This document shows positions 1-42,186 of a DNA stretch of 64,000 nucleotides, piece by piece; within the stretch, counting starts at the first letter, position 1; each line of letters begins with the position of its first letter. Source of the stretch: Fluctibacter corallii (lineage in GTDB: Bacteria; Pseudomonadota; Gammaproteobacteria; Enterobacterales; Alteromonadaceae). The stretch lies in NCBI RefSeq assembly GCF_025751585.1, contig NZ_JAOWKX010000007.1:62001-126000 (forward strand), read 5' to 3'. The notes beneath the pieces are model-generated. The model saw only the letters and a list, made by a program, of their open reading frames with translations, was not told the DNA's origin and did not search any database. A program made the position numbers and the translations under genes.

Positions 1-200
1 CAAGGCCGGTACCCCGCCTGCATCGCTTGATGGGCGTAATCATAATAGGTCACATTATCTTCTTTTGGAGCCGGTGCGGGGCAAATAGGGCGACAAAAGA
101 TCCCCGTCGTTTTTACTGCTACAAAGAAGGTCCCATCAAACCGATAATCCCGAGCTTGTCGCGCGCTCTGATAGGCTTGTTGACTCAGCACCATATTCAT
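1..200 (-). CDS. Ada-type metal-binding DNA repair protein, N-terminus only (cut by window edge)
   Basis: The minus-strand frame from the ATG at 200 runs open to the window edge (66 codons). It reads as the Ada N-terminal zinc/methyl-acceptor domain: RFDGTFFVAVKTTGIFC, then RPIC four residues on, and AGYRP just before the edge, where the third cysteine is due. In the Ada family these cysteines bind Zn and one takes methyl groups from phosphotriesters. The domain is found in Ada and also fused to AlkA-type 3-methyladenine glycosylases; the missing C-terminus prevents a choice. The Ada motif fixes the strand; the overlapping plus-strand frame at 27-218 is a shadow. Confidence 0.8.
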   Translation of the reverse strand, partial: MNMVLSQQAYQSARQARDYRFDGTFFVAVKTTGIFCRPICPAPAPKEDNVTYYDYAHQAMQAGYRP

Positions 201-371
201 TCCACTACTCGCAAATAATGATATAAAAGTGTACCGTGAATCGGATAAACACACCCGCGTAAAACGGAACTGAATCAACAGTTGATTAATGTATCGTGAA
301 AAAAGGATAATAGCATCGTAATATATAAGGGCTAAACGCCCTAGAACGATAAAAACAAATATTAAGATTCC

Positions 372-1532
372 ATGTTGTTGAAGCGATTTTTATTTACAGG
401 TCTATTTATCATAAACCTGCTCATTGTTGACCTTGCTATTGCCCGACAGGCGCCATGGTTATATGACTATGCCGATAGCACCCAAGCTAAAGCTGCGAAA
501 CATAATATTCCTGGCTACGCATTGGTGTTTGTAGAAAAAGGCAAACCCGAGCACATTTTCACGTTTGGTAAAACGAGCCGAAAGGGCGCGCCTATTTCCG
601 AAGACACAGTATTCAGGCTTGCTTCTGTCTCAAAAACCTTTACAGGGATGGCAATTGCCAAACTGGCAGAACAAAAAGCCATTAATTGGGATACGCCTGT
701 ATCAAAGCTCGCGCCTGAATTTGGGTTTGCTACCAATGGCCGCAATGATCTGACCGTGCGCCATATTGTTGGGCAAGCCAGTGGCTACATGCCCAACGCC
801 TACGACAACTTAATTGAAGCCAATTACCCGCTCCCTCGGGTACTAAATATGCTGGCAGATTTAGAGCCACTGTGTACACCAGGCAAGTGTTATACCTATC
901 AAAATGCGTTGTTCGGTGTGTTTGAGCATTACTTTGATGCCCAAAATACCAGTTATCGCGCCGTGCTTAATCGAGAAATTTTAAAGCCTTTAGGTATGCC
1001 CACTGCCAGTGCCGGATTAGCCGCGCTGTTATCTTCCGATGAGTGGGCAAAACCCCATATTGCCATTCGAAAAGACAAATGGCGTGAAGGCAAAGTCAAA
1101 AAGAGTTACTACCGCTATTCGCCCGCAGCAGGGGTCAACGCGAGTATAAAAGATATGACTATTTGGCTACGAGCCATGCTAGGTGAATATCCTCATGTTA
1201 TTTCTGACTCACTCATAGAGCAAGTCACAACGCCCGTGGTAAAAACATCACGTGAATTGCGCAGACGCGACTGGAAAGGGTATTTGAACGATGCCCACTA
1301 TGGTTTAGGTTGGCGTATCTATGACTTCAAAGGCCAGCCCCTTATCTATCACGGTGGCTGGGTTCAAGGTTATCGTGCAGCCATTGCATTTGCACCAGAG
1401 CAACAGGTTGGCTTTGCAATCCTGATGAATGCAGAATCAAATACAATAAACGGATTAACCGCTGCATTTTGGGCTGACTTTTTCACCCAATATGCAACTC
1501 TTGCGGCTAAGCAAGAGAAAACCCAAAACTAA
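372..1532 (+). CDS. Serine hydrolase of the beta-lactamase/penicillin-binding fold (class C-like), exported
   Basis: A 386-aa protein with an N-terminal hydrophobic signal segment (residues about 5-24, cleavage near AIARQ). The serine beta-lactamase/DD-peptidase triad is visible: SxxK in LASVSKTFTGM (about residue 87), YxN in YTYQNALFG (about 176), and HGG in IYHGGWVQGY near the C-terminus, replacing KTG. This set is typical of the broad Pfam beta-lactamase family (esterases, D-amino peptidases, AmpC relatives), so the substrate cannot be assigned. The gene is monocistronic, with a hairpin terminator behind it. A second member of the family lies at 48486-49685. Confidence 0.85.
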   Translation: MLLKRFLFTGLFIINLLIVDLAIARQAPWLYDYADSTQAKAAKHNIPGYALVFVEKGKPEHIFTFGKTSRKGAPISEDTVFRLASVSKTFTGMAIAKLAEQKAINWDTPVSKLAPEFGFATNGRNDLTVRHIVGQASGYMPNAYDNLIEANYPLPRVLNMLADLEPLCTPGKCYTYQNALFGVFEHYFDAQNTSYRAVLNREILKPLGMPTASAGLAALLSSDEWAKPHIAIRKDKWREGKVKKSYYRYSPAAGVNASIKDMTIWLRAMLGEYPHVISDSLIEQVTTPVVKTSRELRRRDWKGYLNDAHYGLGWRIYDFKGQPLIYHGGWVQGYRAAIAFAPEQQVGFAILMNAESNTINGLTAAFWADFFTQYATLAAKQEKTQN

Positions 1533-1624
1533 TATCTACCACCGTCCCTCGGGGCAGCGCATACTTTATTGCCAAAAGGCTTGAACACTGCCGAGTGTCA
1601 AGCCTTGCCTTTCTCCACCCCCTT

Positions 1625-1654
1625 TTGAGCTAGGAAGCTCAACGCTCTTTTTTA
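1625..1654 (+). terminator. Rho-independent terminator after the serine hydrolase
   Basis: Inverted repeat TTGAGCT/AGCTCAA with a short loop, followed within a few bases by a run of T. A second stronger hairpin without a T-run (AAGGCTTG...CAAGCCTT, 1576-1606) precedes it. It separates the hydrolase from the redox cluster. Confidence 0.55.
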
Positions 1655-1752
1655 ACCGTAAACAAATGTTTTTACACAGCTTGTGAAAATATTGTCTACC
1701 CTTAATAACACAATAACCTTTGACACTTCTTCACGCTTCGACGGAGCAAATT

Positions 1753-2799
1753 ATGATTAAACTTAGCCGCAGTTTGATATTTTTTTGCAGTATGCTTTCG
1801 TTGTACGGTCTTACGTTTAGCAGTTTCGCATCGCAATATGTGTTTGAAGCTGGACACCCGTCTCTTCAACGTTGGCTTCTGCCTGAAGAGGTACCTGCAC
1901 CAGACAACAATAAAACAACACCAGAGCGCGTTGAGCTAGGCAAAAAGCTCTTCTTCGATACGCGATTAAGTGGCGACGGCAACATGTCTTGTGCAACCTG
2001 CCACAATCCTATGTTTGGATGGTCTGACGGGCTTGCCACAGCCAAAGGATTTAAAAGTATGGTGTTAGGCCGCGCTACACCGACTATCGTCAACACAGGT
2101 TACAACTCCATTCAAATGTGGGACGGCAGAAAAGCCACATTGGAAGACCAAGCCATGGGCCCGATGGAATCACATGTAGAAATGAACATGAGTATTCCCC
2201 GTTTAGTCGAATTTTTAAAAACATCTGACTATGCGAAATCCTTTAAAAAGGCATATCCCGATGAACCTATTGGTACAGAAACCTTAGCGAAAGCCCTCGC
2301 CGCATTCGAACGCACTGTGGTGAGCCGCAACTCCCCTTTTGATCGCTGGGTTAAAGGGGAAAAAGACGCGCTTACTCCTGCTCAGATTAACGGGTTTAAA
2401 GTATTTGTTGATCCTGACAAAGGAAACTGTGAAGTGTGCCACAGCGCGCCTAACTTTACAGACAACGGCTTTCACAATATCGGCTTGCCGTCTTATGGGG
2501 CGGAAACACCAGATATGGGCCGCTTTGAATTTGTGCCTATTCGCCTAATGAAAGGCGCATTTAAAACACCAACGGTAAGAGACATCACAACCACGGCCCC
2601 GTATTTTCATGATGGCAGTGCACGTACGTTAGAGGACGTCGTCGACCATTATATTACTGGCGGTGTTGTCAAAACCAATGTCTCTCCGAATATGAAGGCG
2701 CTGACGTTAACCGATAAAGAAAAAGCCGATTTAGTCGCTTTCTTAGAAGCCCTAACGTCACCGCAAAAACCTTTTACTTTGCCAGCGATTCCACTTTAA
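1753..2799 (+). CDS. Di-haem cytochrome c peroxidase (CCP/MauG family)
   Basis: A 348-aa exported protein. The start at 1753 is chosen over 1720 because GGAG lies 6 nt upstream and the signal peptide (SLIFFCSMLSLYGL) begins there. Two CxxCH haem motifs are visible, CATCH at about residue 80 and CEVCH at about 226, with the spacing of bacterial di-haem peroxidases. Such enzymes reduce H2O2 to water in the periplasm with electrons from small cytochromes or cupredoxins. The next genes encode exactly such carriers. It is first in a tight run 1753-5533, all on the plus strand, that ends with msrPQ. Confidence 0.9.
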   Translation: MIKLSRSLIFFCSMLSLYGLTFSSFASQYVFEAGHPSLQRWLLPEEVPAPDNNKTTPERVELGKKLFFDTRLSGDGNMSCATCHNPMFGWSDGLATAKGFKSMVLGRATPTIVNTGYNSIQMWDGRKATLEDQAMGPMESHVEMNMSIPRLVEFLKTSDYAKSFKKAYPDEPIGTETLAKALAAFERTVVSRNSPFDRWVKGEKDALTPAQINGFKVFVDPDKGNCEVCHSAPNFTDNGFHNIGLPSYGAETPDMGRFEFVPIRLMKGAFKTPTVRDITTTAPYFHDGSARTLEDVVDHYITGGVVKTNVSPNMKALTLTDKEKADLVAFLEALTSPQKPFTLPAIPL

Positions 2800-2823
2800 C
2801 GCGAAAAATCACAAGGAGAATGT

Positions 2824-3138
2824 ATGAAAGCCCTTTTCATCACCCTACTGTTACTTATCGTCAGCGCGACGGCTATAGCCAAAACCGTTGAAGTAGCACA
2901 AAAAGACAAAGAGTTTACGGTTGCTGAAGTTGAAATTAACAAAGGAGATGTAGTGCGCTTTGTGAATGAAGATCCATTCTTTCACAACGTTTACAGCCTG
3001 TCAGACACCAAGTTATTTGATTTAGGATCTTTCCCTAAAGGGGAATACCGAGATGTCACCTTCGATCAAGCAGGCACGGTTGAAGTGGAGTGTGCTATTC
3101 ACCCAGCCATGAAAATGAAAGTCATCGTTAAAGAATAG
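2824..3138 (+). CDS. Periplasmic cupredoxin (plastocyanin/pseudoazurin-like type 1 copper protein)
   Basis: A 104-aa protein with an 18-19-residue signal peptide ending ATAIAK. The type 1 copper ligands are all visible: His in DPFFHN and the C-terminal Cys-His-Met set in VECAIHPAMKM. A good ribosome binding site (AAGGAG) precedes the ATG. It begins 24 nt after the peroxidase stop and ends 10 nt before the cytochrome start, so it is surely co-transcribed. It probably shuttles electrons between membrane or cytochrome donors and the peroxidase; the partner is inferred from context only. Confidence 0.9.
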   Translation: MKALFITLLLLIVSATAIAKTVEVAQKDKEFTVAEVEINKGDVVRFVNEDPFFHNVYSLSDTKLFDLGSFPKGEYRDVTFDQAGTVEVECAIHPAMKMKVIVKE

Positions 3139-3148
3139 GATAAGCACC

Positions 3149-3883
3149 ATGCGCAGGTTAAGCATGATAAATAGTGTATGGGTGCTGATGATCATCAGCA
3201 GTTTTGCAACGGCAAAGCCAGACAGCGCAGCAACAGGAAAACCCAACTTGGATGTCTATGAGAAGGTCAGTCATCCATCGATGGAATTGGGCGCTCACGT
3301 ATTTAAACATCGATGTGCCTTGTGTCATGGTCCACAAGGCATGGGTGAAGGACGGCTGGCAATGCAAATCAAAGATTACCCCGACACTAACCTGCGTACT
3401 AATATCAAATACCCAAATCGAGCGGGGCTTGAAAAAGTCATTGCCCATGGCGCGTCATTAGCGGGCGTATCGCCTTATATGCCGCCGATGGGTGCAGATA
3501 TCAGTTGGACAGAATTACAAAGCGTTGTCGATTTTGTTTTACTGTTACGCGAAGACGCGCCCAAGGCGCTCACCTTTTTAAATGACGTTCACATTAAAAA
3601 TGAAACCAACCTTCTTGATTTAGGTAGACAGGTCTTCAATACGCGTTGCACTTTGTGTCATGGTGATTATGGCAAAGGCGACGGCCGCATGAGTAAAATC
3701 ATCAAAACGCCACCACCAGCCAATTTAACGGTGAGCGTATTACCTAAACAATATTTACAAGACATCATTGAAAAAGGCGGAGAAAAAGTCGGGCGTTCTA
3801 TGCAAATGCCGCCTTGGAAAGACCAGCTTAGTGAAGAAGAATTAGAAAGCGTAGTTGAATATGTGTATACCTTGCGCAATTAG
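3149..3883 (+). CDS. Di-haem c-type cytochrome
   Basis: A 244-aa exported protein with two tandem cytochrome c domains: CALCHG (about residue 56) and CTLCHG (about 167), each followed by a Met-containing loop (YMPPMGA; MQMPPW) that probably supplies the sixth ligand. A hydrophobic N-terminus (MINSVWVLMIISSFATAK) is the signal; ATG 3149 or 3164 could start it. It lies between the cupredoxin and msrP and is a candidate electron carrier for the peroxidase branch of the cluster. No catalytic domain is seen. Confidence 0.88.
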   Translation: MRRLSMINSVWVLMIISSFATAKPDSAATGKPNLDVYEKVSHPSMELGAHVFKHRCALCHGPQGMGEGRLAMQIKDYPDTNLRTNIKYPNRAGLEKVIAHGASLAGVSPYMPPMGADISWTELQSVVDFVLLLREDAPKALTFLNDVHIKNETNLLDLGRQVFNTRCTLCHGDYGKGDGRMSKIIKTPPPANLTVSVLPKQYLQDIIEKGGEKVGRSMQMPPWKDQLSEEELESVVEYVYTLRN

Positions 3884-9369: not shown

Positions 9370-9924
9370 TCAGATAAACGCCTTGTTTTCTTCATCAATA
9401 GACGCGGCGAGCGCATAGAGTTTTGCAATGATCAAAAAGGTGATTGCCACAACCAATTGTCCTGGTGCGATATTCAATTCGATGTTTGCTGACTGACCAG
9501 TGACCACTAATAGCATCAACAGTGGCCATAATAGCGAGTAAGCAACCATTCCGGTATACCCTTGTGCAGCCCGATAAAGGCAGTAGGCCGCATCATGAGA
9601 GAAAAACTCGCTTCGGGAAGTATGGCGAAAAAAGCGATCCAATTGCATATAAGCAAACACGCACAACCCAATCAAAGGCAGTAAAGACACCCATAGCCAT
9701 GTTTGCGAAACCGTCTGTTGCTCCCACAGCGCATTGAACTGACCACTAAATAAACTGACCCACCAACGCCCTTCAATAAACCATCCCATTGCGCTGGTTA
9801 TCATGACCAATATTGCAAAAGAGGCGATAAGCAAACGCGCCCCTTTGCTTAACGTGCGTATATGTCGATTTAGAGAGTTTTGCTCTACTGATGTTTCTAA
9901 CGCCTTCATATCTAACAGTCTCAT
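9370..9924 (-). CDS. DUF2975 family integral membrane protein
   Basis: A 184-aa protein with four predicted membrane segments (LLIASFAILVMITSAMGWF; WLWVSLLPLIGLCVFAYM; a segment at MVAYSLLWPLLMLLVV; LVVAITFLIIAKLYALA). The pattern of TM pairs with RFF...YCLYRAAQG between them and a closing A-x-x-D/E-E-N-K tail fits DUF2975. The stop is 1 nt from the XRE start. An internal ATG at residue 6 is an alternative start. The usual inference is that the membrane partner modulates the HTH protein. Confidence 0.75.
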   Translation of the reverse strand: MRLLDMKALETSVEQNSLNRHIRTLSKGARLLIASFAILVMITSAMGWFIEGRWWVSLFSGQFNALWEQQTVSQTWLWVSLLPLIGLCVFAYMQLDRFFRHTSRSEFFSHDAAYCLYRAAQGYTGMVAYSLLWPLLMLLVVTGQSANIELNIAPGQLVVAITFLIIAKLYALAASIDEENKAFI

Positions 9925-10034
9925 AGTGACAATAATCTCGCTATTTTACATCTTGAAACAATTATTACAAAACAACCTATAATTATTGTATTACGATAAT
10001 TTGTTATCACAGAACATTAACTACGGAGTATTCT

Positions 10035-11321
10035 ATGAATATAACAGCGCCCATCAAACTTTGCGTGTTTATTGTCTCTTTACTCTATTTGAGCGGCTGC
10101 CAGCTTGCGAATTCACTCTCATTTTTTCTAAAGCAGCAGCAGGCGAACGTCAAATGGACCACCCCCGACAAGACAACAAGCGTGCCATTTACAACATACA
10201 ACCATCACATTATTGTGCCTGTAAGCATCAATGGCGGCGAGCCACTGAGGTTCGTGTTAGATACGGGTGCAGCCGCAACCGTTATAACCCAAAGCCCAAG
10301 AACGAAGCATTTATCCTTTAAAAAAGATTCACCTATCGCTATCAGCGGTTCGGGGAATGATGGCGACCCCACTGCGTACGTTTTGGATAATATTACCCTC
10401 AGTACGGGTGACTTCTCGATTGCAAACCTATCGGTTATTTATGCCACAACCGACGCACTCCCCTTTGATTCCCAAGACGAAACTTACTTCGACGGCGTGA
10501 TTGGAGCTGACTTTTTTAACCGCACGACAATTGAAATTGATTACGGCAATATGCAAGTCACATTTGCTGAACCACCAGAAAGTCACGAACATTTCCACGA
10601 TCAACGCTTAGCACAAGGTTGGCAATTCCACGCCATGCCAGTTCATAGCGATACGCCATTTATAGACACCCATGTAACAATAAACGATAAAAAACACACC
10701 GTGAAAGTCATGATAGATACAGGCTCAACAGGATATTTATCTCTATTTATGGGTGTCTTACCAGAAGGGGTCACCGTACCAGCCAAACATTATGAAGCAC
10801 GTTCACGGGGCATCAGTGGCTACTCACGCAATAAAGTAGGTTTGGTAGACAACATGACACTTGCAGGATTCAATGTTAATCATTTTCCTGCCTATTTTAG
10901 AAGCGAGGGAGAAAACCCCCAAAGTGGCAGCCATGGGGTATTAGGCAATCAAATACTGCGTCAATTCAACGCCATCGTTGATTTTGAACATGAAGCCTTG
11001 TATTTAAAGCCTATCCGCGATGGCGTGTCTTCCCAAACATTGCCTCATTTGGGCTTGCGTATTCTTCCTCATGAAAACGGGGGGATCATCAAAGCAATTT
11101 ATGAATTCTCCGCATTACCCCAAAATACATTCAACGTGGGTGACATCATCACGTCAATCAACCAAACCCCCGTGAACTCAACGAGCTTTGATCATATTAT
11201 GCAAACAATAAGTAAAAACTCGTCAAATCACTCACACATTGAAGTCTGTATCGCTGGGCATCAAGACTGCTACGACATTCCTATCTCGCCCATGCCGTGG
11301 GAAAATACCGTGGGGAAATAG
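10035..11321 (+). CDS. Lipoprotein with two retropepsin-like aspartic protease domains and a C-terminal PDZ-like region
   Basis: A 428-aa protein. The N-terminus has a lipoprotein signal with lipobox LSGC. Two aspartyl-protease half-sites are present in one chain, VLDTGAAATVIT (about residue 75) and MIDTGSTGYLSLF (about 225), each followed by the hydrophobic-hydrophobic-G turn (VIGADFF; VLGNQIL). A single chain could thus form the two-Asp site that retropepsins make by dimerising. The last about 80 residues (LGLRILPHENGG, FNVGDIITSINQTPV) look like PDZ. GGAG precedes the ATG. It is monocistronic; substrates are unknown. Confidence 0.8.
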   Translation: MNITAPIKLCVFIVSLLYLSGCQLANSLSFFLKQQQANVKWTTPDKTTSVPFTTYNHHIIVPVSINGGEPLRFVLDTGAAATVITQSPRTKHLSFKKDSPIAISGSGNDGDPTAYVLDNITLSTGDFSIANLSVIYATTDALPFDSQDETYFDGVIGADFFNRTTIEIDYGNMQVTFAEPPESHEHFHDQRLAQGWQFHAMPVHSDTPFIDTHVTINDKKHTVKVMIDTGSTGYLSLFMGVLPEGVTVPAKHYEARSRGISGYSRNKVGLVDNMTLAGFNVNHFPAYFRSEGENPQSGSHGVLGNQILRQFNAIVDFEHEALYLKPIRDGVSSQTLPHLGLRILPHENGGIIKAIYEFSALPQNTFNVGDIITSINQTPVNSTSFDHIMQTISKNSSNHSHIEVCIAGHQDCYDIPISPMPWENTVGK

Positions 11322-35513: not shown

Positions 35514-35729
35514 ATGTCTGCCCCAAGTAAAAAACCGCTTACGTTGCGGTTAACCACGCACCTCGTTGACGAGATTCAGGAAGCCGCTTCAACGCAAGGT
35601 ATTACTACACAAGAATTTATCCGCCGCGCAATAGGTACAGAGCTGTACTTAATGAAAGAACATGCCAATGGCTCGCGTGTGCTGATTCAGACAAAAGACA
35701 ATGAAGTAAAGGAAATTGTGCTAAGATAA
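35514..35729 (+). CDS. Small ribbon-helix-helix-like protein, copy 1
   Basis: A 71-aa protein with beta strand KPLTLRLTTHLVDEIQEAA and a following helix TTQEFIRRAIGTELYL, as in MetJ/Arc-type RHH DNA-binding proteins. GGAG lies 8 nt upstream. The C-terminal tail is similar to the second copy at 36179 (AIG-ELF/Y). It begins the run of small genes to the left of the tRNA-Phe island; function unknown, possibly an autoregulator or antitoxin-like protein without a visible toxin. Confidence 0.65.
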   Translation: MSAPSKKPLTLRLTTHLVDEIQEAASTQGITTQEFIRRAIGTELYLMKEHANGSRVLIQTKDNEVKEIVLR

Positions 35730-35771
35730 ATTATGCAGTGATGGTTACGGATGACGTTGAGGAATTGGGTT

Positions 35772-35945
35772 ATGGCCAAAGAGGATGAAAACGATCAAAG
35801 TGTCATTGTTATTGATGATTACGTTCTGCCGAATGTGATCCATATCGACACACCTGTGCCTAATCCTCCTCCTGAAGACGACGAGACAAGCCACACTGTA
35901 TCGATCAAAACCTATAGAAATCTAATTTGGCGAATATACCGCTAG
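35772..35945 (+). CDS. Small hypothetical protein following RHH copy 1
   Basis: A 57-aa acidic, proline-rich protein (VIVIDDYVLPNVIHIDTPVP) starting 42 nt after the RHH gene. ATG 35772 is preferred because GAGG lies upstream; an earlier in-frame ATG at 35751 exists. No family recognised; it could be non-coding. Confidence 0.35.
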   Translation: MAKEDENDQSVIVIDDYVLPNVIHIDTPVPNPPPEDDETSHTVSIKTYRNLIWRIYR

Positions 35946-36178
35946 TCTTTTCTTCTCATTTGCTTGTTATCTTTTCTTTTCGCTTCTCTCAATTCACACA
36001 TGTTGATATTACAGAAAATTTTAACCTTATACTTTTCAGTGCTTTAGTACTGAATTCGTAACATATCGACAAAACCTCACGTTAAAACACTTGCGCCTGA
36101 TTGTTTTTTGATCAATATTGAAACCAATAAGACATCAAAAAGATATCTTATTTAATCAAACCAATCGGAGTACTCATT

Positions 36179-36376
36179 ATGTGTAACAGAGAAACGTTAG
36201 TACTGAAAATTTCGAGAAAAGTCATTGATGAAATCCACCGCACGGGTATGGACACAAAATCATTCATGATGAAAGCCATTGGCGATGAGCTGTTCATCAG
36301 GAATGAGCTGGCTGAAGGCAATGTGCTGTGTTCAGTATCTAAGTACTCGACGGTTAAACAACTCGATATGAGATAG
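36179..36376 (+). CDS. Small ribbon-helix-helix-like protein, copy 2
   Basis: A 65-aa protein parallel to copy 1: LVLKISRKVIDEIHRTG then TKSFMMKAIGDELFIRNEL. CGGAG lies upstream. The 21 nt before it (36150-36170, ATTTAATCAAACCAATCGGA plus G) recur with 18/21 identity at 37694-37714 in front of another tiny reading frame, so the leaders are related. The presence of two diverged copies within 700 bp suggests a phage- or island-type small-gene cluster. Confidence 0.6.
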   Translation: MCNRETLVLKISRKVIDEIHRTGMDTKSFMMKAIGDELFIRNELAEGNVLCSVSKYSTVKQLDMR

Positions 36377-36499
36377 GTCTCTTAACGCTCTAGATTGAGC
36401 AGACAGGAAGAAGAACATAAGAAAGGAGCGCTTACACTCAAAAACAAGGATTTGCCAACGAGACACAATCTCATAGTCATCCTCATAGGAGGCATTGGT

Positions 36500-36880
36500 A
36501 TGAGAGGAAGTAAACTTCGTGATGAGCGTAAACGTAAACTAAATTTTCAACGCATTTTGACCGTATTTAACAAGAAAAATGCAGCGAATGAACCAACAGG
36601 GGAGGAACAAAGCGAATCGACTATTGATTCATCAATAGCGCCTCGCACGATTAATGTTGATGATCAGGTTAAGATTTCATCCAATAAGCGACGTATGGAT
36701 CTTGCCATTATCTGGTCACTCATCTTTGTAGGGTTGATTTTTGTTCCAATGCTGTTTGTAGGTTTCGGCGCGATTGAGTTTGAAATCTGCAAGCAAATTT
36801 GGGAACAACTACTCACACCTACCGTCGCCATTAATACCGCAATTATTGGATACTTGTTCGGTCGAAATGGTAAAAACTAA
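36500..36880 (+). CDS. Small membrane protein with a basic N-terminal half
   Basis: A 126-aa protein. The start at 36500 is chosen for the strong AGGAGG site 7 nt upstream; a longer frame opens at 36395. The N-terminal half is basic and polar (GSKLRDERKRKLNFQRI); the C-terminal half has two membrane segments (LAIIWSLIFVGLIFVPMLFV; PTVAINTAIIGYLFGRN), recalling phage holin-like or small inner-membrane proteins. It follows RHH copy 2. No family recognised. Confidence 0.55.
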   Translation: MRGSKLRDERKRKLNFQRILTVFNKKNAANEPTGEEQSESTIDSSIAPRTINVDDQVKISSNKRRMDLAIIWSLIFVGLIFVPMLFVGFGAIEFEICKQIWEQLLTPTVAINTAIIGYLFGRNGKN

Positions 36881-37001: not shown

Positions 37002-37171
37002 GTGCCCAGAGGCGGAATCGATACGCGCTACGCAGTAGCACCGACACGAGGTGCGAATTTAAACATAACACACACCGTTAGAATGTGTTCTTGAATTCAC
37101 TTAACCCCAGAACGAAAAAAGCCTCGACCATTTCTGATCAAGGCTTTCGGAATAATGGTGCCCAGAGGCGG
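37002..37171. repeat. Left 170-bp direct repeat (tRNA-Phe 3'-end-like copy A plus spacer)
   Basis: 170 nt that match 41957-42126 at 166 positions. It starts with a copy of the tRNA-Phe 3' end (minus strand: acceptor 3' strand and T-arm), in which a short palindrome-bearing insert (GCTAC-GCA-GTAGC) interrupts the T-arm. It continues with the tRNA-Phe terminator-like hairpin and ends at the start of the next tRNA-like copy. The pair defines the ends of the 4.8-kb island. Confidence 0.85.
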
Positions 37172-37218
37172 TGTCGATACGTGCTACGCAGTAGCATCGA
37201 CACGAGGATTTTCAATCC
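37156..37218 (-). repeat. tRNA-Phe 3'-half copy B, candidate attL
   Basis: From the anticodon loop to CCA the minus strand matches tRNA-Phe (shared 21-nt block CGACACGAGGATTTTCAATC plus C, read on the plus strand). The T-arm is replaced by a nested palindrome, GTGTCGAT...GCTAC-GCA-GTAGC...ATCGACAC. Tyrosine-recombinase elements that insert in tRNA genes leave such a 3'-half copy at their far end, so this is the best candidate left attachment site. Confidence 0.6.
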
Positions 37219-37721
37219 GCTAAGCAGACAATGCATTTCAATTTAAAATCAATCACTTAGATAGATTTCCATTCCAAGTGGAACTTCCGAAAACTGACTT
37301 GCAAACCGCATGTTTTGGTTCAATTAAAACTGCGTTTTTGGAAATCAATTTTTAAGGAGGTTTTATCGAAAATTCACGTTCACGAAGCGCATAAAACAAA
37401 AAACCGAGGTGTGAACTCGGTTTGATATTGGATGTGAAGTCAAGATTAGACGAATCTTAACGCCCCACCAGTTGTAGTTGCCAGACTATAACTGCGATTT
37501 TGAAATCAGTTAAATATTACCGTTGGTACTTACTCTTGCGTAGCAGATCTTCATAAACAAAGGTACCTTTTCTTTACATTGAAAACTTTACGGATTTATT
37601 TACACTCAAGCAAGCTGTTTCCTAAGGTCTTGTCAGTAAATGAACACTAGCAAACAAGTGGTCGTTTATTTTACGAACTATTTGTCTGCTATAATTTGAT
37701 TAAACCAATTGGAGGATTTGT

Positions 37722-37841
37722 ATAAAGTCTTGGGAAGAGCATAAAATTGAAATGCAAAAAGAAGAACAAAAAGGATGGCTATCTGCATTGGTCTATTCAA
37801 CTGTAATTATAGTGCTGGTATTCGCCTTCCTTAAATTCTAA
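37722..37841 (+). CDS. Tiny candidate membrane peptide with a strong RBS but ATA in the start position
   Basis: A perfect GGAGG (37711) is followed 7 nt later by ATA and a 39-codon frame: a charged start (KSWEEHKIEMQKEEQKGW) and one membrane helix (LSALVYSTVIIVLVFAFLKF). The first ATG is at 37752, giving a 29-aa peptide. The upstream 21 nt match the leader of the 36179 gene. Either the start codon mutated from ATG, or a rare AUA start or the internal ATG is used. Its stop overlaps the helicase stop on the other strand. Confidence 0.35.
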   Translation: MKSWEEHKIEMQKEEQKGWLSALVYSTVIIVLVFAFLKF

Positions 37842-39861
37842 GTTTCTTGAACTCCTTTATGTACCATTTATGAAGCTTGTTTAACTTAGGACTCAATGCG
37901 TCAATGCTATTTGCATAAATTGCATCGCCAGTTCTAATGGCGGCAGTTAGTCCTGTCTCATAAACAAATCTTGTTGCAACTGACGTAAGTTTCGGTGTCG
38001 AATCCCACGCATTGGCTAACCATTTTTTCAGTCCTTCATCCTCGGGGACGATGAACGTTACGCTGCGCATAGCACGTGTCATCCCGACGTAGAATAGCCT
38101 TCTGTTTTCTTCAAGTTCTGAATCCGTGGTTAATTCTTTTGGTAAAACAATGTCAGCATCATTTTTAGCTATACCTGGATAGTCCTTTTCATTTAGTCCA
38201 ACCATTACCACATGGTCCCACTCAAGCCCTTTGGAAGTATGAAGCGTAGATAAAACAAACTCAGCAGTGCTTACAGGTTCAGGTGGTTCCAAAATCAAAT
38301 TCAAGAATTCTAAACCAGATAGATGAGATGTAAGCAGTAACTGTTCAATTCTAAAGGTACCGCGCTTTTGGTCGTTAGAGCCAATTCGTGAAACGCCTCC
38401 AAACCCAATGCTATCGAATAGCCCTAGGTTTTTTAGGTCTGAAAACATAGTAGAAGCGTTTGTATTTTCATCATATTTGTTTTTTAAGGCACTTAGTTCA
38501 TCTACTCTTTGTCGCCGAAATTCGCTTTGCCCCAATAAACTGTAGAGAGTATTCCATAAATCTGAATCTGGATGCATTAATACTTGTCTTGCTTCCTGCA
38601 GTTGCCCCTTTTCCCATTTGAAACCAGCATTTTTTAAGAAACCGAAAACTAATGTCTGCCTTTGTGGATTGCCATTTAAGATTTGTAAATCCCCAAACAT
38701 CCCTATGGAAAAATAGATCGCTAACATGCCAATTTCTGCCCGAGTGTATAGAGGTGAATCACCATTCAAATACGAATAGGCAATTCTATTCATTCGCAAT
38801 GCTAGTTCTGTTTCAGCGAGGCTAGCTTTCGTCCTTGATAGTATTGCGCAAGAGCCATCTTGATTGGCGAGCTCTCTAAGTGCACTTTGCATGTCGTCTT
38901 CATGATAGATTTGAATCTCTGTATTCGTCGCACTCGGATGACTTATACAAAGACTCGATTGCTTGACAGAATTGCGACGGATCACGGAATTAGACATAAG
39001 GGCTAACTTATGTCCGAATCTAAATGTACAGGAGAGGTTAAAAACTTTTGTATTTATATAATGCTTCTCGAATATACCAGCAATGAAATCTGGGCGCGCA
39101 CCACGCCATTCATAAATGCACTGGTTGACGTCTCCCACAGCCATAACAGACACCCCAGACGTCGCTACCCTTTTTACAAGTTCATTTTGTATGAAATTTA
39201 CGTCTTGATATTCATCAACAATGATCTGCCTGAATGTCCCTAGAATCTGTGGACATTCGTTGAGTATTTTTACTGCTTCAATCAAACAATCGTCAAAAGT
39301 ACGTAATTTGTTTTCATCTAAGGTATCGCAATACCAACTGTAAGCTCTTAAAAATTCGGGTTTTGTTTCGTTCAATGATGGATCTGAAGAAATATCGCTC
39401 GGTACTATTCCTTCGGCACGATTACGGGTGATAAAAAGCTCCAGTTCCTCAATATCATCCTGCGGGATATACGTGTCGCTATGCGAAAAACCATTGCGAT
39501 ACGCTTGTTTAACCATGTTTACATGTTTTGGGTCGGCAGGCGTTAGTAGCGTTCTTTTCTCAATAAGCTTTCTATTTTCTGCAACCTTAATGACTTGTAG
39601 TGCGAAGCTATGAAATGTTCGTACTTCAGGAATAACATCACTATCTAGAGCAATTTTTAGCTTTTCAGCAAAACTCACTTGTGCTGATTTATTGTACATG
39701 AGTACCAAAATAGCCCTCTTCGAAACTCCGGACTTAACTAGTCTTTCTACTCTTTTAACCAACGTTGTCGTTTTGCCGCTACCAGGTACCGCTTTAACTA
39801 GTGCATGTCCATCAAGGTGGTGGACGACAGCTTTTTGCTCTCTTGTAAGTCTTTTGGCCAT
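37831..39861 (-). CDS. UvrD/Rep-type superfamily 1A DNA helicase, second gene of the island operon
   Basis: A 676-aa helicase with all SF1A motifs: Walker A AVPGSGKTTT (24-33), motif Ic TFHSFAL, Walker B IIVDEYQD (213-220), motif III GDVNQCIYEWRGA (243-255), motif V TLHTSKGLEWD (539-549) and motif VI RRLFYVGMTRA (587-597). It is shorter than UvrD (720 aa) with a divergent 2B region and no fused nuclease domain. Its ATG overlaps the TAA of the CoiA-like nuclease gene by one base (TAATG), implying translational coupling. It is not an orthologue of chromosomal uvrD or rep judging by length and context. Nuclease-helicase pairing in an island suggests DNA-targeting defence. Confidence 0.9.
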   Translation of the reverse strand: MAKRLTREQKAVVHHLDGHALVKAVPGSGKTTTLVKRVERLVKSGVSKRAILVLMYNKSAQVSFAEKLKIALDSDVIPEVRTFHSFALQVIKVAENRKLIEKRTLLTPADPKHVNMVKQAYRNGFSHSDTYIPQDDIEELELFITRNRAEGIVPSDISSDPSLNETKPEFLRAYSWYCDTLDENKLRTFDDCLIEAVKILNECPQILGTFRQIIVDEYQDVNFIQNELVKRVATSGVSVMAVGDVNQCIYEWRGARPDFIAGIFEKHYINTKVFNLSCTFRFGHKLALMSNSVIRRNSVKQSSLCISHPSATNTEIQIYHEDDMQSALRELANQDGSCAILSRTKASLAETELALRMNRIAYSYLNGDSPLYTRAEIGMLAIYFSIGMFGDLQILNGNPQRQTLVFGFLKNAGFKWEKGQLQEARQVLMHPDSDLWNTLYSLLGQSEFRRQRVDELSALKNKYDENTNASTMFSDLKNLGLFDSIGFGGVSRIGSNDQKRGTFRIEQLLLTSHLSGLEFLNLILEPPEPVSTAEFVLSTLHTSKGLEWDHVVMVGLNEKDYPGIAKNDADIVLPKELTTDSELEENRRLFYVGMTRAMRSVTFIVPEDEGLKKWLANAWDSTPKLTSVATRFVYETGLTAAIRTGDAIYANSIDALSPKLNKLHKWYIKEFKKLRI

Positions 39862-40844
39862 TAAATCAACTCATAATCGGCACATCTTCTCGCCTCTGTA
39901 TAAGCCACTTTCTTGGCTCTTTTTTGGCATTCCATGTAGCCGTCAATCCAATTTTTTCCATGCTTGCACAGAAGGCACATTGGGTATCTTCTCTCTGGAT
40001 CAGCATGTTGAAGAAATAATTGAAGATTCGCCTCTAAAGCATCAGATGGGAGTTTCTTTAGCCACATATTCACACTTGAGAAGTCGTCAACTTCGATATT
40101 TCCAAGTGCGACTCGCTTCTCGTAGAGCCTTCCAGATTCGCTTAAAGTCCAACAGGAAATCTCAGTATTGTCGGCTATGCAAGTACCGCTGCATTTATCT
40201 CTAGTTTGTATTTTTGGAGAAAAGTTATACAAAGAAATTCGTTCATCGATTCGGCGATAGACGCCGTCCAATAGCATTTGAATATCTCTCTCTGATTCAA
40301 TTTTGAATTCAATAATTGGAATACCGCTAGCTATTTTCTCTTGTGAACATGGGTGTGTTACACATATCTCGATGAAACAGCGTCGCTCGCTTTTCGAATC
40401 TTGCAGCAATACATCAGGTGTAAAACCAGTCACGTTATCGAATTTTTCTAACTCAGCCTTATCGAATATGCGTACTAGGTCGTATCTCGCTAATGTCACT
40501 TTCTCGCATTTAAAACCAAAGTCATCCAAGAGTTTGGCTTTGTGACCGTCACAAACAACCAGTCGATTTAGCTCCAACGTAATGGGCTCATTTTCAGTTA
40601 AAGCGCGTCTATAGGTATTCAGAAATGCATTTTTAGCGCATTTATGAATATATGTTTCATAGGAACAAGAATCGTAATGATGGCGAAAATGCTTGGCCTT
40701 GATTTGACCTAAAATGGGAATGAGGTCGCCTTCACACCCGGGGCAACTATATCGTTCTAGTCTCTTTGCATCATTTACGTGTGTAAGATTACCCCGTGAA
40801 TTATAGGCATATCGATACTGTACAGAGTCTTCTTTTTCATCCAT
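39861..40844 (-). CDS. CoiA-like protein: zinc ribbon plus PD-(D/E)XK nuclease-like domain
   Basis: A 327-aa protein. The N-terminus has YSCPGCEGDLIPILG (CxxC at 34-37) and KAKHFRHH (51-56), the zinc-ribbon/His pattern of competence protein CoiA relatives. A nuclease core follows: FTPDVLL (Asp144), then CFIEICVTHPC (Glu159, with Cys161 where CoiA has Gln and classical PD-ExK has Lys). A C-terminal CLLC pair (290/293) may bind a second zinc. ATG 40844 gives the CoiA-like N-terminus; the frame continues open to 41090, but that extension is basic/hydrophobic and probably untranslated. First gene of the two-gene operon with the helicase. Confidence 0.72.
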   Translation of the reverse strand: MDEKEDSVQYRYAYNSRGNLTHVNDAKRLERYSCPGCEGDLIPILGQIKAKHFRHHYDSCSYETYIHKCAKNAFLNTYRRALTENEPITLELNRLVVCDGHKAKLLDDFGFKCEKVTLARYDLVRIFDKAELEKFDNVTGFTPDVLLQDSKSERRCFIEICVTHPCSQEKIASGIPIIEFKIESERDIQMLLDGVYRRIDERISLYNFSPKIQTRDKCSGTCIADNTEISCWTLSESGRLYEKRVALGNIEVDDFSSVNMWLKKLPSDALEANLQLFLQHADPERRYPMCLLCKHGKNWIDGYMECQKRAKKVAYTEARRCADYELI

Positions 40845-41340: not shown

Positions 41341-41466
41341 ATGAACAGTTCGATATTTTTAGACAAAGGGGATGTGGTAAGACTTACAGGTACAAAAGTA
41401 CGTAAACTACAAGTCGAACACCTTTCAAAATCAAATATTTCTTTTCAGCTAGACCGCAATGCTTAA
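41341..41466 (+). CDS. DUF4224-like protein, truncated
   Basis: A 41-aa frame with AGGA upstream: IFLDKGDVVRLTGTK, HLSKSNISFQLDRN. This matches the start of DUF4224, a short protein found directly before tyrosine integrases of phages and islands. The family usually continues after a Gly-Arg-Pro-x-V turn; here it stops early, and the following integrase has lost its N-terminal half. This fits one deletion that removed the end of this gene and the start of the integrase. Confidence 0.6.
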   Translation: MNSSIFLDKGDVVRLTGTKVRKLQVEHLSKSNISFQLDRNA

Positions 41467-41866
41467 ACTCAATATATCAATGATTTTGGAAAGCTGTTTC
41501 TTTGTGCACGATATTTCTAAAAGGGGCGGAGCTTTAATGTTTGATTGGACTGATGATTTGAGGGCATTAATAGACCGAATAACTAATTCAATGCCTTCCG
41601 CTTCAAAATATTTTTTTACTAGTAAAACGGGTGAACCACATAACGCGGAATCATTCAGTAGTGCTTGGCAGAGATCGATGGCTAGGGCGTTAGAAAACGA
41701 CCTAGAGAAACCGTTTGCTGAGAGATATTTGAGGAATAAAGCTATAACTGACTACAATGACCTGGCGAAGGCTAGCAAAACAGTAGGTCACACAAGTACT
41801 TCCGTTACAAAGCAACATTATAGTATGCTTGGAGCGCGGGTAGAACCGTTCGAGAAACGAGTATAG
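41459..41866 (+). pseudogene. Tyrosine recombinase (integrase), C-terminal fragment
   Basis: 135 codons. From about residue 20 it follows phage integrases: RGGALMFDWTDDLRALID (beta strands with the Lys region), FSSAWQRSM, the box II helix ERYLRNKAITD, and KTVGHTSTSVTKQHYSML with the GH...Y box. The N-terminal arm- and core-binding domains and the first catalytic Arg are missing, and the box II His is Tyr. It is therefore a dead remnant. It lies directly inside the tRNA-Phe junction, the usual place of an island integrase. Confidence 0.75.
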
Positions 41867-41954: not shown

Positions 41955-42126
41955 TGGTGCCCAGAGGCGGAATCGATACGCGCTACGCAGTAGCACCGAC
42001 ACGAGGTGCGAATTTAAACATAACACACACCGTTAGCATGTGTTCTTGAATTCACTTAACCCCAGAACAAAAAAAGCCTCGACCATTTCTAGTCAAGGCT
42101 TTCGGAATAATGGTGCCCAGAGGCGG
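41955..42126. repeat. Right 170-bp direct repeat (tRNA-like copy C plus spacer, running into tRNA-Phe)
   Basis: 41957-42126 matches 37002-37171 with four differences. It starts with the palindrome-interrupted tRNA-Phe 3' copy C, preceded on the left by its own terminator-like hairpin (GCCCCGCAA...TTGCAGGGC, 41923-41946). It ends inside the intact tRNA gene. With the left copy it brackets the helicase/nuclease cargo. Confidence 0.85.
42074..42102 (-). terminator. Terminator of tRNA-Phe
   Basis: On the minus strand AAAGCCTTGA, loop, TCGAGGCTTT followed by T-run, immediately after the CCA end. The same hairpin is duplicated within the left repeat. Confidence 0.75.
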
Positions 42127-42186
42127 AATCGAACCACCGACACGAGGATTTTCAATCCTCTGCTCTACCGACTGAGCTATCTGGGC
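42111..42186 (-). tRNA. tRNA-Phe (anticodon GAA), CCA encoded
   Basis: 76 nt on the minus strand. Acceptor stem GCCCAGA/TCTGGGC, D-arm with AGCTCAGTCGGTAGAGCA, anticodon stem-loop GGATTGAAAATCC (anticodon GAA), T-arm GGTTCGATTCC, discriminator A and encoded CCA. It is the only intact tRNA in the window and the integration target of the island. Confidence 0.97.

What the first reader, a model, noticed from the sequence alone, without database searches (positions are those of the whole stretch)
37831..40844. Candidate defence system: coupled CoiA-like nuclease and UvrD-type helicase in a tRNA-Phe island
Seen: a two-gene minus-strand operon (stop/start overlap TAATG) of a protein with CoiA-like zinc ribbon and PD-(D/E)XK-like core (Asp144, Glu159-x-Cys161) plus a complete SF1A helicase, as the only intact cargo of a 4.8-kb island flanked by direct repeats. 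Known: nuclease-plus-UvrD pairing occurs in anti-phage systems such as Gabija (GajA/GajB), but GajA is an OLD/TOPRIM nuclease, not CoiA-like. Inference: this is a distinct two-gene DNA-targeting defence module.
Basis: partly seen in the sequence, partly recalled or inferred. Interest (0 to 1): 0.75.

Follow-up and report, generated by a model that had tools for sequence, protein, structure and literature searches.

The report
Mobile nuclease-helicase pair, likely genome defence
A marine bacterium carries two tightly linked genes, a likely DNA-cutting protein and a DNA-unwinding motor, that also travel as a unit on large plasmids of gut bacteria, in one case inside a jumping element together with a known restriction system, so they are probably an undescribed defence against invading DNA, though this has not been tested here.

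Summary
Two genes overlap as TAATG on the minus strand (37831-39861 helicase, 39861-40844 nuclease-like) in a 4.9-kb island with a decayed integrase between tRNA-Phe-derived repeats. P0001 has a CoiA_N zinc ribbon and a conserved E133/D144/E159 core; its modelled core is most like restriction-endonuclease folds, but only at Z<=7.3. P0002 has all SF1A motifs. The pair behaves as one module: both genes are adjacent in 17 of 17 distinct loci, and among 295 order genomes both occur in the same 4. Relatives are on 802 of 72,556 plasmid records, IncHI1 and IncHI2 among them. In pHCM1 the pair sits in a 4.1-kb unit with inverted repeats and an 8-bp duplication, absent from R27 at base precision. An IncC plasmid holds an 11.4-kb ISL3 (ISKpn25-type) transposon: pair, transposase and type I restriction-modification. 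Both genes show purifying selection. R27 transfers without the pair, so a conjugation role is unlikely. Best reading: a mobile nuclease-helicase defence module, Gabija-like in architecture with a different nuclease. Defence is inferred, not shown; helicase-truncated copies exist.

The parts
39861..40844 (-). Gene A: 327-aa CoiA-like protein: N-terminal zinc ribbon (C34, C37, HFRH 52-55, C60), PD-(D/E)XK-like core (E133, P143-D144, E159), Cys-rich C-terminus (C290, C293, C306, C321 invariant among close relatives)
37831..39861 (-). Gene B: 676-aa UvrD/PcrA-type SF1A helicase with all motifs; its start overlaps the stop of gene A (TAATG)
37002..37221 (.). Left repeats: two tRNA-Phe 3'-end-like copies (37002-37051, 37158-37221)
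41957..42132 (.). Right repeat, 97% identical over 176 nt to 37002-37177, running into tRNA-Phe
42111..42186 (-). tRNA-Phe (GAA), presumed insertion target; its 3' part is repeated at the left end
41341..41866 (+). Decayed tyrosine integrase: N-terminal DUF4224-like piece (41341-41466, E=0.027) and C-terminal Phage_integrase piece (41459-41866, E=6.8e-4), both under Pfam's cut-off

Best explanation
The two genes form one module of a CoiA-like zinc-ribbon PD-(D/E)XK nuclease and a UvrD-type helicase that protects its carrier replicon or host against invading DNA (phage or competing element). Likely action (inferred): the two proteins form a complex; zinc ribbon and helicase load on ends, flaps or replication intermediates of foreign DNA, the helicase translocates and unwinds, and the E133/D144/E159 site cuts. 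The module spreads as cargo: in this genome in a tRNA-Phe integrase island, in enterobacterial plasmids in ISKpn25-type ISL3 elements, one of which also holds a complete type I R-M system. Shown by computation: gene pairing, selection, mobility, conserved motifs, probable fold class. Inferred: complex formation, nuclease activity, target, defence phenotype.
For: Pairing: 17 of 17 distinct full-length loci have the helicase directly downstream; in plasmids both proteins give the same counts for Enterobacter 258, Salmonella 225, Escherichia 177 and Klebsiella 67 (Citrobacter 38 against 39), and in the 60 rows seen helicase identity jumps from 52.9% or more to 31% or less; in 295 order genomes both occur in the same 4. 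Selection: dN/dS 0.09-0.31 in 16 of 16 comparisons. Nuclease core: D144 and E159 in 31 of 31; model residues 71-90 and 121-180 at pLDDT 92-97; best VIA rows are restriction-endonuclease-like (3ijm Z 7.3; 9y1l 6.8; DUF820 3ot2 5.8; Bax1 6p4w 5.4). Mobility and defence association: precise insertion in pHCM1 against R27; four different 8-bp duplications; 11.4-kb ISL3 transposon with annotated hsdR/S/M; short forms keep the pair and a 5' remnant of hsdM without transposase and R-M. A distant CoiA_N relative in the window's own family (L040) lies divergently beside a true Gabija locus (GajA E=3.5e-250, GajB E=7.3e-198). Patchy, horizontal spread: 802 of 72,556 plasmids, 117 of 5,426 E. coli genomes.
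Against: No activity or phage data. The only known defence system directly linked to the pair is one R-M system in one complete transposon (L060); neighbours scanned in Pseudomonas, Aeromonas and Marinobacter show no clear defence island. The usual Lys of (D/E)XK is absent. Z-scores are below 8, which the tool says may be only a common arrangement; Foldseek gave no PDB match at E<=0.001. 13 of 60 spread rows have the helicase match ending at residue 556; the one opened (L107) has a 586-aa helicase ORF followed by transposition and recombination genes, so the helicase is dispensable in that lineage. One nuclease copy is frameshifted (L018). Distant CoiA_N proteins occur without this helicase (L039, L041).
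Confidence: 0.6

Rival explanations
1. A DNA repair or recombination module: like CoiA in competence, the nuclease and helicase process incoming or broken DNA to help establishment of an element or recombination in the host, with no immune role.
For: The N-terminal domain is named for competence protein CoiA; UvrD/PcrA helicases are repair enzymes (recalled); the next-best helicase relative in the order (G421, 35%, residues 5-641) is a stand-alone gene between two ORFs that do not look like nucleases by eye.
Against: Patchy, horizontally spread distribution (4 of 295 order genomes, 802 of 72,556 plasmids), carriage with type I R-M in one transposon; the CoiA nuclease profile PF06054 has no match in this genome at E<=1e-3 and is not listed for P0001 at E<=1.
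Confidence: 0.2
2. A plasmid-transfer accessory of IncHI plasmids that processes DNA during conjugation.
For: In pHCM1 the pair lies between trhN and trhI; 672 of 802 plasmid records are typed conjugative; the Pseudomonas duriflava copy is near T4SS genes.
Against: R27, the plasmid used as IncHI1 transfer model (PMC7366339, passages), lacks it; of 191 records matching the R27 junction, 129 cover at least 80% of it, that is the empty site, while 62 carry the occupied junction; R478 has it elsewhere, near ter; 9 neighbour proteins scanned at Aeromonas and Marinobacter copies include no conjugation gene.
Confidence: 0.07
3. A helper of the transposon itself: the pair assists ISL3-type transposition or repair of the target.
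For: In L060 it lies between the left inverted repeat and the transposase.
Against: An ISKpn25 copy without the pair has both ends and its own duplication (L067), and ISKpn25 is reported inserted in mgrB (PMC8796155, passages); the pair occurs without such ends in the window, pKD02, Azotobacter, Pseudomonas, Aeromonas, Marinobacter and G454 loci (some contigs are short).
Confidence: 0.06
4. Degenerate cargo without function.
For: One frameshifted nuclease copy (L018), helicase truncations in Enterobacter plasmids, a copy on an E. coli chromosome split by IS100.
Against: dN/dS 0.09-0.31 in all 16 comparisons; all motifs intact in the window.
Confidence: 0.05

Closest known systems
Gabija (GajA-GajB)
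   Same: Two-gene nuclease plus UvrD-type helicase module; P0002 scores GajB PDLC00117 at E=1.1e-53
   Different: No GajA: P0001 matches no GajA, OLD or TOPRIM model; its core is PD-(D/E)XK-like with a CoiA zinc ribbon. A true GajB from the same family scores 7.3e-198 over its full length, while the best GajB stretch in P0002 is residues 7-374; P0002 (676 aa) is longer than the solved GajB chains of 493-499 aa
Druantia DruB (CoiA_N-like N-terminus)
   Same: Weak match of P0001 residues 12-82 to DruB1, E=1.8e-5; 7 of 10 distant CoiA_N proteins also touch DruB weakly (two of them at E above 0.001)
   Different: No match beyond the zinc ribbon; the partner helicase is UvrD-type
Competence protein CoiA
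   Same: CoiA_N zinc ribbon above Pfam's cut-off
   Different: CoiA_nuc profile PF06054 has no match in this genome at E<=1e-3; constant helicase partner
CoiA-domain defence protein of Vassallo et al. 2022 (PMC9519451)
   Same: A CoiA domain in a protein of a system validated as anti-phage in E. coli (passages, outline and section 7 seen)
   Different: Sequence, name and gene neighbours not available here; identity with P0001 neither shown nor excluded
ISKpn25 (ISL3 family, 8154 bp; PMC8796155 passages; annotated transposase plus type I R-M in L067)
   Same: The L060 element shares both inverted ends, transposase and hsdRSM (94.7% over 4691 bp, 87.8% over 2908 bp)
   Different: In L060 the pair is added between the left inverted repeat and the transposase; 4.1-kb forms keep the pair without transposase and R-M

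Membership tests
Gabija | GajA OLD-type ATPase/TOPRIM nuclease partner | tested here: not met
   P0001 matches no GajA/OLD/TOPRIM model in PADLOC (E<=0.1), Pfam or NCBIfam (E<=1); a true GajA in L040 scores 3.5e-250
Gabija | GajB UvrD-type helicase | tested here: inconclusive
   GajB profiles match, best E=1.1e-53, but PcrA/UvrD models match as well and a true GajB scores 7.3e-198
Druantia | DruE-type large helicase with Dru partners | tested here: not met
   P0002 is UvrD-type by Pfam; only DruB's N-terminal region matches P0001 weakly. PADLOC showed 25 of 54 families for P0002, none of them DruE; DruE's make-up is recalled
CoiA competence protein | CoiA_N domain | tested here: met
   PF25164 28.0 bits against cut-off 26.3
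CoiA competence protein | CoiA nuclease domain PF06054 | tested here: not met
   No match in the whole genome at E<=1e-3; control rings in 3 of 14 named genomes (B. subtilis, S. elongatus, L. lactis)
PD-(D/E)XK nucleases | Conserved acidic core residues | tested here: met
   D144 and E159 in 31 of 31, E133 in 30 of 31, P143 in 29 of 31
PD-(D/E)XK nucleases | Lysine at the (D/E)XK position | tested here: not met
   Position 161 is Cys in P0001; K in 2 of 31, A in 10, C in 6. K170 is K in 18 of 31, K181 in 7 of 31
PD-(D/E)XK nucleases | Restriction-endonuclease-like fold | tested here: inconclusive
   Model core pLDDT 92-97; best VIA rows are of this fold but Z<=7.3, with unrelated titles among lower rows; Foldseek PDB none at E<=0.001
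SF1A UvrD/PcrA helicases | Walker A and motifs II-VI | tested here: met
   All found; PF00580 E=6e-43, UvrD_C E=6.7e-19
ISKpn25-type ISL3 transposon (L060 copy) | Inverted repeats, 8-bp duplication, DDE_Tnp_ISL3 transposase | tested here: met
   Ends and CATTAAAC duplication; PF01610 E=2.2e-58
ISKpn25-type ISL3 transposon (window copy) | Same inverted repeats flanking the pair | tested here: not met
   No matching end within 4 kb of the pair (best site 8 mismatches); the window copy is in a tRNA-Phe integrase island
Vassallo 2022 CoiA-domain defence system | Homology to its CoiA protein | not testable with these tools
   No sequence held; the main text only names a CoiA domain

The most novel reading that the evidence does not exclude
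An undescribed two-component immune system (CoiA-like nuclease plus UvrD helicase) that travels as cargo of ISL3 transposons, alone or with a complete type I R-M system, and has sat unrecognised on IncHI1 and IncHI2 resistance plasmids such as pHCM1 and R478, where it guards the plasmid or its host against phages or rival plasmids.
Probability: 0.5. Interest if true: 0.8.

Novelty: new variant of a known kind. Interest (0 to 1): 0.62.

Why it matters
If true, large and clinically important plasmid families carry a transposable immune module for which PADLOC-DB 2.0.0 has no model that matches beyond GajB-type helicases and a weak DruB hit. That bears on phage therapy, plasmid competition and how defence genes spread. 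R27 and pHCM1 offer a natural comparison, since they differ at this site by exactly this insertion. In R478 the pair lies 2.7 kb from the VWA gene and 4.3 kb from the last TerD-family gene of the ter region, to which phage inhibition was mapped in 1995 (title and citing passages only), so old phenotypes could be re-read.

Tried and rejected
Structure with a shallow alignment (A3, 11 rows) failed (pLDDT 37.8); one with 25 distant CoiA_N proteins gave 74.3. PDB sequence search found nothing for P0001 at E<=1 or for profile A5 at E<=10. P0001 had no match in phages, and its alignment A1 none in viral contigs; four distant CoiA_N queries also gave none there. The motif scans of viral contigs returned 20 and 15 loci; all 35 score with the A5 profile, but the motif came from the family, so that is no independent test. 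Of the 35, nine were left out as near-identical or short and L097 was dropped for lacking a clear core; 25 went into A6. Absences in Foldseek and VIA lists are not read as a new fold. A guess in my notes that the pair equals two R27 genes next to trhN was wrong: R27 lacks it; a note counting 19 loci held two duplicates, so the number is 17. Empty chromosomal site: mutY-yggX-tRNA-Phe synteny holds in 7 of 7 family genomes taken from the top hits, but the other side is variable and no clean empty site was obtained. A search for an integrase arm domain (PF12167) in this genome found none. A phylum-wide search of 398 genomes with P0002 found only the window's own at E<=1e-60. dN/dS used 8 chosen pairs of 9 sequences; comparisons with the window copy were not made (saturated). 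Plasmid typing was seen only for the records opened, so the share of IncHI among the 802 is not measured; for scale, 1,396 records match a 1-kb R27 trhN region. Papers: nine listings, top rows only, showed no paper on this pair in the held open-access library; subscription papers are mostly missing, so absence in print is not claimed. Two records with 60-80% helicase identity were not listed and not seen.
Full report
WHAT IS THERE. The two ORFs are as reported: helicase 37831-39861 and CoiA-like protein 39861-40844, both minus, sharing one base in TAATG. P0001 (327 aa) matches Pfam CoiA_N at 25-62 (E=1.6e-6), a marginal NCBIfam YD-repeat model (E=0.014), nothing in PHROGs, and in PADLOC only DruB (E=1.8e-5) and Specificity_I (E=0.023). 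P0002 is a UvrD-type SF1A helicase. The island runs from tRNA-Phe-derived repeats at 37002-37221 to the tRNA gene at 42111-42186 and holds a decayed tyrosine integrase. In 7 of 7 family genomes that I took from the best hits, mutY, yggX and tRNA-Phe stay together while the island's side is variable.

THE PAIR IS ONE MODULE. tblastn with P0001 found relatives in 802 of 72,556 plasmid records, 784 of them over at least 80% of its length, all under 60% identity (47-52% in the full-length rows seen). A five-row profile found 11 loci in genome contigs and full-length members in 4 of 295 genomes of the order, the window's included; 11 more genomes had weak matches of the CoiA_N type. After removing duplicates (L001 and L019 are the window; L024 and L025 are the contigs of L014 and L015), 17 distinct loci remain: window, L004-L018 and L026. 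All 17 have a P0002 relative (52-58% identity) starting at the end of the nuclease gene. In L018 the nuclease gene is frameshifted; in L010 and L012 the helicase aligns only to residue 556. The reverse test agrees: P0002 in plasmids (E<=1e-30, 858 records) gives the same counts for the four main genera, and among 60 spread rows identities fall from 52.9% or more (55 rows) to 31% or less (5 rows) with nothing between; two records with 60-80% identity were not listed. In the order, P0002 at E<1e-200 occurs in exactly the four genomes that have P0001; one further genome, G421, has a 35% relative that stands alone between a PdxH-like ORF and another small ORF (named by eye). Distant CoiA_N proteins need not have this partner: G408 has a relative (30% and 37% identity in two ORFs) with no P0002 match in 20 kb, and L041 has none either.

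BOTH GENES ARE KEPT BY SELECTION. NG86 dN/dS for 8 chosen pairs of sequences and both genes lies between 0.09 and 0.31 in 16 of 16 comparisons.

NUCLEASE CORE. In A5 (16 rows, 19-51% identity, not chosen by motif) E133 and D144 are in 16 of 16 and E159 in 15 of 15 that cover it. In A6 (31 rows, 25 of them distant proteins at 16-32% identity) D144 and E159 are in 31 of 31, E133 in 30, P143 in 29. The distant A6 rows were found with a zinc-ribbon motif, so invariance of H52, F53, H55, C60, E63, H67 and K71 there is by construction; D144 and E159 were not in the motif. The pattern is a zinc ribbon followed by an E...PD...E core as in PD-(D/E)XK enzymes, without the usual Lys; position 161 is Cys in 6 of 31. 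AlphaFold with A6 gave mean pLDDT 74.3, pTM 0.56, with residues 71-90 and 121-180 at 92-97. VIA-align 2 ranks restriction-endonuclease-like folds first (3ijm Z 7.3, rmsd 3.3, 95 residues; 9y1l 6.8; 6okh 6.4, uncharacterised; DUF820 3ot2 5.8; Bax1 6p4w 5.4; further down BpuSI, DrdV, Hjc and others, with unrelated titles among them). Foldseek found no PDB match at E<=0.001 and nine viral predicted structures at that level, one named competence protein. All Z are below 8, so the fold is likely but not proven.

HOW IT MOVES. pHCM1 has the pair between trhN and a lipoprotein gene; R27 has the same backbone without it. BLAST of the two gives a clean break (pHCM1 locus 11674/15774 against R27 9028/9019). 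The insert has 24-bp imperfect inverted repeats and an 8-bp duplication. Among the loci opened there are four different duplications: pHCM1 AAAAAAAG; TATGTTTA in L011, L013 and pK29 (L065, IncHI2A), and at the same site in R478 (L066); GAAAAATT in L062 and L063; CATTAAAC in L060. L061 has both ends but no matching duplication. L064 (E. coli chromosome) lacks the left end and its helicase is split by IS100. Of 191 records that match the 65-bp R27 junction, 129 cover at least 80% of it (empty), and 62 records carry the occupied left junction; such records are partly clonal. L060 (IncC plasmid) holds the complete 11.4-kb form: pair, ISL3 transposase (PF01610 E=2.2e-58) and annotated type I R, S and M genes (R also matches PADLOC REase_I, E=7.2e-36). 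It shares both ends, transposase and R-M with an ISKpn25 copy, L067, which has no pair and its own duplication GTTTATAT. Five short forms compared align with L060 over its positions 1-3415 (88-89%) and its last 294 bp, which include the 5' end of hsdM; transposase and the rest of the R-M are missing. The direction, loss of R-M with the pair kept, is inferred from that remnant. No such ends flank the pair in the window, pKD02, Azotobacter, Pseudomonas, Aeromonas, Marinobacter or G454 loci, so other carriers exist.

DEFENCE CONTEXT. Besides L060, a distant CoiA_N protein in a genome of the window's family (L040, 33% identity over 87 residues to P0001) lies divergently beside a true Gabija locus: GajA E=3.5e-250, GajB E=7.3e-198. 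In L041 a similar protein has, about 4 kb away, a large SNF2-type helicase that matches several PADLOC helicase models (DpdE, DrmD; best E=5.1e-53, partial). These are two of three weak loci for which I took 20 kb; L039, the third, was not scanned. In other loci: an HNH protein near L062 matches PADLOC HNH (E=2.2e-8) and an Aeromonas Sir2 protein PDC-S65 weakly (E=3.7e-4). Twenty neighbour proteins in Pseudomonas, Aeromonas, Marinobacter and G454 loci scanned by Pfam show T4SS, Fic, GTPase, Sir2, dynamin-like, secretin and sensor genes and others, but no clear defence island; only two of these twenty were scanned by PADLOC and one more (no match).

WHAT IT DOES. Patchy distribution, carriage by several kinds of mobile element, co-carriage with type I R-M, a nuclease-like core with a helicase, and purifying selection point to defence against foreign DNA. 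That is inference. A conjugation role is made unlikely by R27; a transposition role by pair-less ISKpn25 and by copies outside such elements. A repair role is the main rival. Against universal need: 13 of 60 spread rows have the helicase match ending at residue 556 and one at 622; the one opened, L107, has a 586-aa helicase ORF followed by transposition and recombination genes.

COMPARED WITH KNOWN SYSTEMS. It resembles Gabija in architecture but lacks GajA, and P0002 scores far below a true GajB. It shares only a zinc ribbon with DruB. It is not a CoiA by the nuclease profile. Vassallo et al. (PMC9519451; outline, passages and section 7 seen) validated E. coli defence systems, one with a CoiA domain; I could not compare sequences. 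R478 carries the pair near the ter genes, to which phage inhibition was mapped in 1995 (title and citing passages; the paper itself is not held).

Noticed in passing
37002-37051, 37158-37207, 41957-42006: Three tRNA-Phe 3'-end-like copies share an extra stretch containing the hairpin GCTAC-GCA-GTAGC; the functional tRNA lacks it.
   Followed up: partly
L060:3008-14424 (NZ_CP133339.1): Complete ISKpn25-type ISL3 transposon with added cargo on an IncC plasmid, a defence-loaded transposon.
   Followed up: yes
L040:8914-13215 (G382, window's family): A CoiA_N protein lies divergently beside a true Gabija GajA-GajB locus.
   Followed up: partly
L107 and rows H183-H195: In many IncHI2-type records, mostly Enterobacter in the rows seen, the helicase match stops at residue 556; in L107 foreign DNA follows.
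   Followed up: partly
L066 (R478 83841-86863): The pair sits 2.7-4.3 kb from ter-region genes linked in the literature with phage inhibition and colicin resistance.
   Followed up: partly
L069-L103 (IMG/VR contigs): CoiA_N proteins with the same E...PD...E core occur on viral contigs, several with long C-terminal extensions; function unknown.
   Followed up: no
L039 (G408), 9447-10467: A P0001 relative split over two ORFs, with no P0002-like helicase in the 20 kb taken.
   Followed up: partly
L005 (pKD02, Alteromonas macleodii): Closest plasmid relative (52% and 58%) lies near a tyrosine recombinase and upstream of a 362-aa ORF without a PADLOC match that might be a further component.
   Followed up: no
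35514-36880: Small ORFs left of the repeats: 65 and 161 aa without a Pfam match, and a 71-aa ORF with weak CopG/RHH-type matches under cut-off.
   Followed up: no
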